The notes beneath the pieces are model-generated. The model did no database searches and was not told where the DNA came from. It was given only the letters and a program-made list of their open reading frames with translations. A stretch of 64,000 nt of DNA, taken from positions 1 to 64,000 of the forward strand of contig JAEEXG010000002.1 in the NCBI GenBank assembly GCA_016291405.1. The letters are read 5' to 3'. Position numbers and translations under genes: made by a program. Of this stretch, positions 56,759 to 60,288 are shown piece after piece (position 1 is the first letter of the stretch; every line of letters begins with the position of its first letter). The stretch comes from Lachnospiraceae bacterium (lineage in GTDB: Bacteria; Bacillota; Clostridia; Lachnospirales; Lachnospiraceae).

Positions 56759-58240
56759 TTATAAATTCATGCTTTCTTTTACTGCTGTCTTCATGTCTTT
56801 AACATCCACAACAGTATCGTGAATAACGGGAAGCGTCTGAATTTCTTTAACTGCTTCCGGTATCTCCACATTAGCCGCTTTTGAAAGGATATCAATAAGC
56901 TTGAAATCTTCTTCATTTTCGTATTTAGAATCGATAGCCTTCATTACGGAGCGTGAAAACTTAAAGGGACTTGCGGTTGAAGCAATAACCGTTACTGTCT
57001 TATCATTTGTTTCTTTTACGTATTTATCGTAAGAAGCCGCAGCAACAGCGGTATGTGTATCGATAACATATCCTGTGTCTTCGTATAAATCATGGATTTT
57101 CTTCTTGCAGTCATCCCATGATGCGTATTCGCCCACAAACTCATCTTTAATCTTTGAAAACTCGGAGTTTAATGAGTATTTACCCGATGTTTTAAGATTA
57201 TTCATAAGCTCTTTGTTCTTTTCGGCATCCAAGCCTTCACAAAGATAAATGAGTCTTTCAAGGTTTGAAGAAATTAAAATGTCCATTGAAGGTGAATCAG
57301 TAAGGATAAACTCACGATTCTTATCATAAGTACCGCTCTTAAAGAAATCAAAGAGTACTTTATTATCATTTGATGCGCAGATTAACTTGTTAATGGGAAG
57401 GCCCATCTGCTTTGCGTAGAAAGCCGCAAGAATGTTACCAAAGTTACCTGTGGGAACACAAACGTTAATCTTTTCGCCTTCTTTAATGCGTTCTTCTTTT
57501 AATAACTTTGCATATGCATAAACGTAGTAAACAATCTGAGGAACCAGTCTTCCGATGTTAATGGAGTTAGCACTTGAGAACGCGAAACCTTTCTTTGCCA
57601 TTTCTTCTTTTAAAGAAACATCGGAGAAAAGTTCTTTAACCTTTGACTGACAATCATCAAAGTTACCTTTAACGCCTACAACCTTAACGTTTTTACCGCG
57701 CTGAGTAAGCATCTGAAGTTCCTGAACCTTTGATACACCGCCCTTTGGATAAAAGACGATGATTCTTGTACCGGGAACATCGGCAAAGCCTGCCATGGCT
57801 GCCTTTCCGGTATCACCGCTTGTAGCCGTGAGAATGACGATTTCTTTATCTGAATTGTTTTTCTTTGCTGAGGTAGTCATAAGATGAGGAAGGATCGATA
57901 AAGCCATATCTTTAAAAGCAATGGTCTTTCCGTGGAAAAGTTCAAGGTAATAAACACCTTCGGCTTCTGTTAAGGGCGCGATCTCCTCTGTATCGAATTT
58001 GGAATCATATGCTTTTTCAATACAAGACTTAAGCTCGTCCTCTGTAAAATCATTCAAAAAATCTTTCATTACGATATAAGCGGTTTCTTTGTAATCAAGC
58101 TCGCTTATCTCTTTTAATGATTTTGAAAGTTTGGGGAATTCACTTGGAACAAACAATCCACCGTCATCTGACAAGCCTTTTAAGATTGCCTGAGAGGCTG
58201 TCAATTTGATTGAATTGTCTCTTGTACTTGTATAAAACAT
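56759..58240 (-). CDS. thrC: Threonine synthase
   Basis: GKTIAFKDMALSILPH; ILTATSGDTGKAAMAGF; VPTGNFGNILAAFYAKQMGLP. Confidence 0.97.
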   Translation of the reverse strand: MFYTSTRDNSIKLTASQAILKGLSDDGGLFVPSEFPKLSKSLKEISELDYKETAYIVMKDFLNDFTEDELKSCIEKAYDSKFDTEEIAPLTEAEGVYYLELFHGKTIAFKDMALSILPHLMTTSAKKNNSDKEIVILTATSGDTGKAAMAGFADVPGTRIIVFYPKGGVSKVQELQMLTQRGKNVKVVGVKGNFDDCQSKVKELFSDVSLKEEMAKKGFAFSSANSINIGRLVPQIVYYVYAYAKLLKEERIKEGEKINVCVPTGNFGNILAAFYAKQMGLPINKLICASNDNKVLFDFFKSGTYDKNREFILTDSPSMDILISSNLERLIYLCEGLDAEKNKELMNNLKTSGKYSLNSEFSKIKDEFVGEYASWDDCKKKIHDLYEDTGYVIDTHTAVAAASYDKYVKETNDKTVTVIASTASPFKFSRSVMKAIDSKYENEEDFKLIDILSKAANVEIPEAVKEIQTLPVIHDTVVDVKDMKTAVKESMNL

Positions 58241-58380
58241 ACGAAATCTCCTTTATTATCAAATTACTCTTTTTAAGATAACTTAAAATCCCCGATAGTT
58301 CAATAGGTTAAAGTGAAAAACAACATTATGATTGAGGATAAACTCAAATTATGATAACTTTATTATGTAGGAGAAACTAT

Positions 58381-59175
58381 ATGTTACCGGGAGTTTATAT
58401 TGACAAAAAGAAGAACGGTGAGCTTAATTACCGAGCTTCTATAACAATAGACAAAAAGCATATAAGTCTTGGAAGCTATACGTCCGAAATTCAAGCCTCG
58501 GCCGCTTATTCTCTTGCAAAAAAAATCATGGAGGATACCTCCTATTCTTGTCTTAATTATCAGGAATCATCCCCTTTAAAATACGATAAATACGTGTCTT
58601 TAATTAATTTAAGGGATAATCATTTATATTTCAGTAATCCAATCTACATTCGAAGAAGGGATTTTAGCTACTTCTATTCTCCTTTTGAAGAATTGAAATT
58701 TGATATGGATGATTTGTTTTATTTTTCTCAGCATAAAATCATGTGCAGAGGCAATCATTATTTTGTTGCTGAATACGGTATGCAGACTTCCATAAAAGAA
58801 AGATTCGGCATAAGAAGCTTCTCCGTTGAGGGAAGAGACTTTGTATTTGTGAACTCCGATTCACTTGATTTTAGACGTGAAAATTTAAAGATAATAAATC
58901 ACTTTTACGGTGTAACCGAAATTGAAAAGAAACTAAAGAAAAAATATAAAGCTACAATCCACGTTAAGAGTAATTATGTAGTAGGCATATATCAAACCGA
59001 AAAAGAAGCCGCCATTGCATATAACAAGGCGGCCGATACTCTTACCAAAAACGGATTTGAAAAAGAGTTCTTTCAAAATTATGTTGAGGATTTATCCAAT
59101 AAGGAATATGCGGAAATCTACTCAAACCTTAAGATTTCAGACAGAATCATAAACTTAAAGCCATCACTTAAGTGA
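58381..59175 (+). CDS. AP2-domain protein related to HNH-AP2 endonucleases, HNH degenerate
   Basis: Two AP2-like segments (GVYIDKKKNGELNYRASITIDKKHISLGSYTSEIQASAAYSLAKK; KYKATIHVKSNYVVGIYQTEKEAAIAYNKAAD) around FVFVNSDSLDFRRENLKIIN; RBS AGGAGAAACTATATG. Confidence 0.8.
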   Translation: MLPGVYIDKKKNGELNYRASITIDKKHISLGSYTSEIQASAAYSLAKKIMEDTSYSCLNYQESSPLKYDKYVSLINLRDNHLYFSNPIYIRRRDFSYFYSPFEELKFDMDDLFYFSQHKIMCRGNHYFVAEYGMQTSIKERFGIRSFSVEGRDFVFVNSDSLDFRRENLKIINHFYGVTEIEKKLKKKYKATIHVKSNYVVGIYQTEKEAAIAYNKAADTLTKNGFEKEFFQNYVEDLSNKEYAEIYSNLKISDRIINLKPSLK

Positions 59176-60288
59176 GTAATCAATAAAGCTTATGTTAAAA
59201 TTTACATAGCCTGAAATTCCGTCTACTGTTCCAAGATCCTCATATTGCCACATGGCAAACTTATAAGGGTAATCGGGTTTTTCTTCATTGGGCTGAGAAA
59301 GCCACATATCAAACTCGCTTATAAGCTTAGATAAATCGATTTCTTTAATAAGCCATTCTTTATCTCCATAAACCATGGGAATAAGATTGGCTTCTTTTAT
59401 TGTATTTAAGAATGCTCTGGCAACAATTGTTTTATCATTCTTAGATAATGAATCATAACGTGCTGTGTCGCTTCCGTTAAATTTCATTACATAGGCTATT
59501 GGGTAAGTTACTCTAAAGTCTCCGATCATTTCTACGACTTTATTTGCTTCTTCAATTGCCTCAAGCTCAGTTGTGGCAGCTGAAATAAAGTAAAGCCCTA
59601 CATAAAGCCCTGCATCAGTTGCTCGTTTAATGTTATCGGAATAATAATCATCGATAGTAATCTGACCGCTTTGATAGCCTCTTGCACCGACTCTTATCAT
59701 TACAAAATCAACACCGGCTTTTTTAAGCTTATTAAAATCTACATACCCCTGGTCTTTTGAAATATCAACTCCCCATGTACTGGCCGGTTTGTTGTTTACA
59801 AAATATTTCATCTTACCGGAAGAATCTATTAGATTTTCAAAGTCATACTCATGCTTTGTAAGATTGGGGCTTATTGTAACCCAGTCAAAGGTTCCGTCTT
59901 TATTTACAACCAAAGTATGATGACCGTCGTTTGAATAATCTTCTTCCTTCTTTTCTTCCTTTACTTCTTCTTTGGTTTCTTCTTCCGAAGCTTCTTCCTC
60001 GTCTTCTTTGTAAAGATCGTAAAAATCTAAGTCGCTTGCGGTAAGATTAGAATCGCTTTTAAAAATCGGAGTTTCCTCTTCTTCTTTATCGCTTATTGTA
60101 AAGGCATCCTGAACGGAAGTAACTTTCTTTGCCACATCGGTTTCTTTGTATCTTCTCTTAATGGCATTTTTGTTTACAAGCAAAACTGCCATAACGATAA
60201 GCACTATAGAGGAAATAGCAATAATGGCCGCTATGGTAAAGGTCTTATTCTTATTTACTTCATCAAAGTCATCGTTACCTAATTTCAT
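59164..60288 (-). CDS. Membrane-anchored GH25 lysozyme-like protein lacking DxE catalytic motif
   Basis: TWGVDISKDQGYVDFNKLKKAGVDFVMIRVGARGY; WQYEDLGTVDGISGYVNFNISF; catalytic strand reads YPIAYVMKF. Confidence 0.82.
   Translation of the reverse strand: MKLGNDDFDEVNKNKTFTIAAIIAISSIVLIVMAVLLVNKNAIKRRYKETDVAKKVTSVQDAFTISDKEEEETPIFKSDSNLTASDLDFYDLYKEDEEEASEEETKEEVKEEKKEEDYSNDGHHTLVVNKDGTFDWVTISPNLTKHEYDFENLIDSSGKMKYFVNNKPASTWGVDISKDQGYVDFNKLKKAGVDFVMIRVGARGYQSGQITIDDYYSDNIKRATDAGLYVGLYFISAATTELEAIEEANKVVEMIGDFRVTYPIAYVMKFNGSDTARYDSLSKNDKTIVARAFLNTIKEANLIPMVYGDKEWLIKEIDLSKLISEFDMWLSQPNEEKPDYPYKFAMWQYEDLGTVDGISGYVNFNISFIDYSLK

What the first reader, a model, noticed from the sequence alone, without database searches (positions are those of the whole stretch)
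58381..59175. Lone plus-strand gene: tandem AP2 domains around a degenerate HNH core, a possible domesticated homing-endonuclease regulator
Every other confident gene in the window is on the minus strand. This protein has two AP2-like modules flanking a segment that follows the HNH-AP2 layout, in which I expect something like HiNGdxLDNRRENLRIVT. Here it reads FVNSDSLDFRRENLKIIN: the catalytic His is lost but the scaffold is kept. That pattern suggests a former mobile endonuclease reused as a DNA-binding regulator. The intergenic region also holds an inverted repeat TTGAG-GATAAA-CTCAA (58332-58347) that could be an autoregulatory operator.
Basis: partly seen in the sequence, partly recalled or inferred. 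Interest (0 to 1): 0.78.

Follow-up and report, generated by a model that had tools for sequence, protein, structure and literature searches.

The report
Retired endonuclease kept as DNA-binding protein
This gene encodes a protein descended from a self-copying DNA-cutting enzyme; it has lost its cutting residues in all the relatives examined, yet a large part of a gut-bacterial family has kept it for a long time, probably as a DNA-binding regulator, much as plants are thought to have acquired their AP2 transcription factors.

Summary
The ORF 58381-59175 (+, 264 aa) is a real gene and the only plus-strand gene in the window. AlphaFold2 (pLDDT 94) shows two AP2 folds around a middle module that ends in an HNH relic colinear with phage HNH-AP2 endonucleases. 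Both HNH histidines are lost in nearly every homologue aligned, while the Asn is invariant (55/55). The family is single-copy, found in about 40% of Lachnospiraceae genera, and almost confined to their order. It usually sits divergent to thrC within 3.2 kb (55 of 61 genomes with both genes on one contig). Its distribution fits an early gain followed by several losses. dN/dS is about 0.03-0.08 between close relatives. No intact-HNH copy was found at the site, and 'phage' copies look like misfiled bacterial contigs. So a domesticated, catalytically dead HNH-AP2 protein is strongly supported. A sequence-specific transcriptional regulator is the most likely role, but this is inferred. The proposed operator (58332-58347) is not supported: chance-level in the window and conserved only in the sister species. 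The divergent partner gene changes among genera, which argues against a local thrC regulator. I found no description of this family in the held library. Verdict: new variant of a known kind.

The parts
58381..59175 (+). CDS, 264 aa, AP2 - middle module with HNH relic - AP2; monocistronic
   Evidence: ORF and Shine-Dalgarno; homologues in about 40% of Lachnospiraceae genera; dN/dS 0.025-0.08 between close relatives
58390..58536 (+). AP2 module 1 (residues 4-52); beta-3 KHISLGSY is the most conserved element of the family
   Evidence: AF2 model; conservation 3.97 of 4.32 bits; PF00847 in 21 of 55 homologues
58537..58791 (+). Family-specific middle module (residues 53-137)
   Evidence: Conserved across the family; confidently modelled; no Pfam match
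58792..58896 (+). HNH relic (residues 138-172): His1 -> E140 (S/E/N in family), His2 -> F156, Asn168 retained
   Evidence: Alignment counts; hhalign to phage HNH-AP2 proteins; HNH_3 weakly in 10 of 55 members
58900..59058 (+). AP2 module 2 (residues 174-226)
   Evidence: AF2 model; WRI1 match; colinear with phage HNH-AP2
58369..58373 (+). Shine-Dalgarno AGGAG
   Evidence: Sequence
58241..58380 (.). Divergent intergenic region thrC / gene; strongly constrained (6/140 differences from sister species)
58332..58347 (.). Inverted repeat TTGAG-GATAAA-CTCAA proposed as operator; not supported
   Evidence: 0.51 expected by chance in the window; only in sister species
56759..58240 (-). thrC (threonine synthase), divergent neighbour that marks the ancestral site
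   Evidence: Divergent upstream within 3.2 kb in 55 of 80 genomes, 61 of them with both genes on one contig
59164..60288 (-). GH25 lysozyme-like protein, convergent neighbour (overlaps by 12 bp); neighbour in the window's genus and some other genera
   Evidence: PF01183 E 2e-19; neighbourhoods

Best explanation
An HNH-AP2 homing-type endonuclease gene settled beside thrC early in the evolution of the order that holds Lachnospiraceae, lost both catalytic histidines and was kept as a single-copy cellular gene. The product most likely works as a sequence-specific DNA-binding protein: AP2-1, whose beta-sheet is highly conserved, reads a short DNA site; AP2-2 and the HNH-derived scaffold add further non-cleaving contacts, extending the footprint as in two-AP2 plant factors. 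Its target genes would be elsewhere in the genome rather than at the thrC locus. Shown: fold (by confident prediction), loss of His, single copy, synteny, purifying selection, lineage restriction. Inferred: DNA binding, loss of cleavage, transcriptional role, distant targets.
For: Fold and families: AF2 pLDDT 94; Foldseek top hits plant AP2 factors and viral HNH/AP2 proteins; PHROG 'HNH endonuclease' phrog_99 matches all 55 members; colinear HNH tail plus AP2-2 with phage proteins. Dead site: His lost in nearly all homologues, Asn168 55/55. Cellular gene: single copy in 16 of 17 other same-genus genomes and 81 of 200 family genomes; absent outside the order apart from AP2-sized weak matches. 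Presence needs 9 changes on a ribosomal-protein tree against 18 in shuffles, and order-level outgroups carry it. Gene distances follow species distances (Mantel r 0.63, shuffles at most 0.56; 0.46 against at most 0.36 without the longest branch). thrC is divergent within 3.2 kb in 55 of 61 co-contig genomes. dN/dS 0.025-0.08 in close pairs, comparable with ThrC. DNA binding: AP2-1 beta-3 is the most conserved segment, and both AP2 modules carry net positive charge on average across the family. An AP2 domain from a Trichodesmium homing endonuclease binds DNA sequence-specifically (Magnani et al. 2004, as reviewed in PMC3794426).
Against: No DNA target, regulon or ligand is known. No conserved operator emerged from 50 upstream regions. 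The immediate divergent partner varies (cell-wall hydrolase 15, thrC 12, others 13), so locus context does not point to a regulon. The gene tree is poorly resolved and shares only 4 of 30 splits with the species tree. The gene is missing from about 60% of family genomes, so it is dispensable over evolutionary time.
Confidence: 0.62

Rival explanations
1. It is a non-transcriptional DNA-binding protein (nucleoid architecture, replication, repair or recombination accessory) rather than a promoter regulator.
For: Two DNA-binding-type modules and a structured middle with no effector domain; no operator found; monocistronic and without a conserved partner gene.
Against: AP2-1 beta-3 conservation suggests base-specific reading; a single-copy gene lost many times fits a dispensable regulator as well as an architectural protein.
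Confidence: 0.2
2. It is still a nuclease, with a rebuilt active site that uses other conserved polar residues (H118, D153, D163, R165, N168).
For: H118 51/55, D153, R165 and N168 55/55, D163 53/55; strong purifying selection.
Against: Both canonical HNH His positions are replaced; H118 aligns by eye with the Tyr of the SKYKW segment in phage relatives, outside the HNH hairpin; single copy at a stable site is unlike a homing enzyme.
Confidence: 0.08
3. It is a local regulator of the divergent thrC and of itself, with the operator in 58241-58380.
For: thrC lies divergently next to it in the window and near it in most genera; the 140-bp intergenic differs by only 6 bases from the sister species although gene dS is about 0.5-0.7.
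Against: In many genera another gene lies between them, often a cell-wall hydrolase; the repeat is not conserved beyond the sister species; genomes that lack the gene keep thrC.
Confidence: 0.12
4. It is a recently inactivated mobile endonuclease, drifting towards loss.
For: Descends from a mobile-element protein class; patchy presence among genera.
Against: dN/dS far below 1, mostly intact frames across genera, His loss shared by order-level relatives, no mobile copies found: full-length phage- and virus-labelled hits carry bacterial thrC and/or leuDC flanks, no plasmid match.
Confidence: 0.03

Closest known systems
HNH-AP2 homing endonucleases of phages (PF13392 HNH_3 plus PF00847; PHROG phrog_99)
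   Same: HNH tail motif followed by AP2, AP2 EAAIAYNKA helix nearly identical; every family member matches phrog_99
   Different: Here an additional N-terminal AP2, both His lost, single-copy chromosomal gene at a stable locus, lineage-wide retention
Plant AP2/ERF transcription factors with two AP2 domains (WRI1, AP2 subfamily)
   Same: Two AP2 folds in one protein; family profile matches both domains of WRI1; TEM1 AP2 is the best Foldseek match
   Different: Bacterial; the AP2 domains are separated by an HNH-derived module; no recognisable activation domain; function untested
Tyrosine-integrase arm-binding domains (PF13356)
   Same: Small three-strand sheet plus helix DNA-binding fold; 5 of 55 members match weakly (best E 3.6e-4)
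   Different: No recombinase catalytic domain in this protein
HO endonuclease of yeast (domesticated homing element)
   Same: Host reuse of a homing-element protein (PMC7282813)
   Different: HO still cleaves DNA; this one appears to have lost its catalytic residues; different nuclease family

Membership tests
AP2 domain (PF00847) | Sequence match to the AP2 profile | tested here: met
   Not for the window protein alone, but 21 of 55 homologues match, best E 1.1e-5; profile match to WRI1 E 2.1e-6
AP2 domain (PF00847) | Three-stranded sheet packed on a helix | tested here: met
   AF2 model residues 5-51 and 178-223; Foldseek hits to TEM1/WRI1/ERF096 (E 0.008-0.6, probability up to 1.00)
AP2 domain (PF00847) | Sequence-specific DNA binding | not testable with these tools
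   Needs EMSA, SELEX or DAP-seq
HNH endonuclease (PF13392) | Catalytic His-Asn-His constellation | tested here: not met
   His positions 140 and 156 replaced, Asn168 kept
HNH endonuclease (PF13392) | Profile match above cut-off | tested here: not met
   Weak in 10 of 55 members, best E 0.0098; no match in own genome
Homing endonuclease | Mobility: sporadic, multi-site or multi-copy distribution | tested here: not met
   Single copy, stable thrC locus, restricted to the order
Bacterial transcription factor | Controls promoters of a defined regulon | not testable with these tools
   No operator found in 50 upstream regions; needs RNA-seq and DAP-seq
Tyrosine integrase | Recombinase catalytic domain | tested here: not met
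   No such domain in 264 aa

The most novel reading that the evidence does not exclude
A bacterial order carries its own domesticated AP2 transcription factor: a dead HNH-AP2 endonuclease turned into a sequence-specific global or pathway regulator, in parallel with the proposed origin of plant AP2/ERF factors.
Probability: 0.5. Interest if true: 0.78.

Novelty: new variant of a known kind. Interest (0 to 1): 0.62.

Why it matters
Plant AP2/ERF factors are thought to descend from prokaryotic HNH-AP2 homing endonucleases, but bacterial AP2 proteins are known mostly as mobile nucleases. A long-retained, catalytically dead, double-AP2 protein in Lachnospiraceae would be a bacterial counterpart to that domestication, would make the step from nuclease to DNA-binding protein testable, and would assign a DNA-binding role to an unannotated gene common in gut bacteria.

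Tried and rejected
A second copy in the own genome (L002) was a chance match to an unrelated ORF. The inverted repeat as operator was rejected. Enriched words upstream of 50 homologues were Shine-Dalgarno and promoter-like, plus ATAACCG in a few genomes, several of them on the thrC side in the window's genus. Phage and virus origin of current copies was rejected: records MT836856 and MT837267 and IMG/VR L107 have thrC and/or leuDC flanks. Defence role: no PADLOC match. Structured RNA nearby: none in Rfam. Link with sporulation: the window's genus and several other carriers lack a full Spo0A match while several genomes without the gene have one, so no link is apparent; no formal test was run. 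Literature: no paper in the held library describes this family.

Full report
What is there. The window comes from a Lachnospiraceae genome: the closest named record is an uncultured Lachnospiraceae MAG, 98% identical in the protein. The ORF 58381-59175 (+) encodes 264 aa with an AGGAG Shine-Dalgarno. Every other plus-strand ORF of 130 aa or more lies inside a larger minus-strand ORF. Upstream and divergent is thrC; downstream and convergent, overlapping by 12 bp, is a GH25 protein, followed by Rnf genes.

Architecture. Pfam sees nothing in the single sequence, but across 55 homologues AP2 (PF00847) is the most frequent match and HNH_3 the second. The family profile finds both AP2 domains of the plant factor WRI1 in the PDB sequences. 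The AlphaFold2 model (pLDDT 94.3, 55-row alignment) has two AP2-type beta-beta-beta-alpha units at residues 5-51 and 178-223 flanking a middle module. Foldseek's best solved structures are plant AP2 domains, and the best viral matches are HNH/AP2 proteins of giant viruses and phages. E-values against the PDB are only 0.008 and up and TM-scores are low, because single domains align in a multi-domain chain; these are domain-level matches.

The HNH relic. IMG/VR relatives are short HNH-AP2 proteins that read like MHRMV...DHINNEKLDNRKQNLR...AP2. Profile alignment places VNSDSLDFRRENLKII plus AP2-2 on that tail plus AP2 (98%, E 3e-14). The middle module alone scores above all of 200 column shuffles (26.1 against at most 23.2). 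In 55 homologues the first His position is S/E/N/D/T/M, the second is F in 53 and L in 2, and the Asn is invariant. A two-residue shift would put the second His at position 154, which is Y/F in 53 and H in 2, so the conclusion does not depend on the register. The loss is therefore a property of the family and shared by order-level relatives, not of this genome.

Distribution and history. One copy occurs in 16 of 17 other same-genus genomes (the exception is 79% complete) and in 81 of 200 genomes drawn across the family. A more sensitive profile search gives a similar share, 44 of 120. Outside the order, only short AP2-sized matches occur. On a tree of concatenated ribosomal proteins from 60 genomes, presence needs 9 changes against 18 in shuffles, and three carriers branch below the family, consistent with an early gain and several losses. 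Gene and species distances correlate (Mantel r 0.63, shuffles at most 0.56; 0.46 against at most 0.36 without the longest branch), but the gene tree is weakly resolved and shares only 4 of 30 splits, so limited transfer is not excluded. thrC lies divergently within 3.2 kb in 55 of 61 genomes where both are on one contig, while the downstream genes vary: GH25/Rnf, leuDC, ABC transporters and others. Flanking genes run opposite on both sides in nearly all of 40 neighbourhoods, so the gene is monocistronic. dN/dS is 0.025-0.08 (NG86) between close relatives, comparable with ThrC.

The site. The repeat TTGAG-GATAAA-CTCAA is real, but 0.51 such matches are expected in a shuffled window and it is found upstream of the gene only in the window and its sister species. 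The intergenic region as a whole is strongly constrained in the sister species (6 differences in 140 bp, against synonymous divergence of about 0.5-0.7). Two promoters in 140 bp explain this as well as an operator does. No motif other than ribosome-binding and promoter-like words stands out across genera.

Mechanism. Shown: predicted fold, family-wide loss of the HNH histidines, lineage-wide retention under purifying selection at a stable locus. From established knowledge: AP2 domains read DNA through the sheet, and an AP2 domain of a cyanobacterial homing endonuclease binds DNA sequence-specifically (Magnani et al. 2004, reviewed in PMC3794426). In this family the third strand of AP2-1 (KHISLGSY) is the most conserved element, whereas in AP2-2 the helix is. 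The inference is that AP2-1 carries the specificity, with AP2-2 and the HNH scaffold as additional, non-cleaving contacts. Because the neighbouring gene on the divergent side changes among genera, targets are more likely elsewhere than at thrC. Whether the effect is on transcription or on DNA structure cannot be decided here.

Comparison and novelty. By descent it is an HNH-AP2 protein. By the defining tests it is neither an HNH nuclease (histidines not met, profile cut-off not met) nor a homing element (mobility not met). It resembles two-AP2 plant factors in architecture. The papers searched do not describe this family; most subscription journals are not held, so this is a weak negative. I rate it a new variant of a known kind, worth experiments because it offers a bacterial parallel to the proposed origin of plant AP2/ERF factors.

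Noticed in passing
L126 (MT836856.1), L127 (MT837267.1), L107 (IMGVR_UViG_3300003472_000044): Records filed as phage or virus carry this gene with bacterial thrC and/or leuD-leuC flanks; they look like misfiled bacterial chromosome.
   Followed up: partly
Genomes G020, G072, G078, G101, G127, G153: Several Lachnospiraceae genera carry short ORFs matching only the C-terminal DNA-binding part of Spo0A, often two per genome, with no full-length Spo0A listed.
   Followed up: no
58241-58380: The thrC/gene intergenic region differs by only 6 of 140 bases from the sister species although gene dS is about 0.5-0.7, so it is strongly constrained.
   Followed up: partly
G021:C8:54997-56511: ThrC matches in two overlapping pieces in G021, suggesting a frameshift or assembly error.
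   Followed up: no
L144:7269-8069 and 17 other neighbourhoods: A SleB-like cell-wall hydrolase (PF07486) often lies between thrC and this gene, divergent from it.
   Followed up: partly
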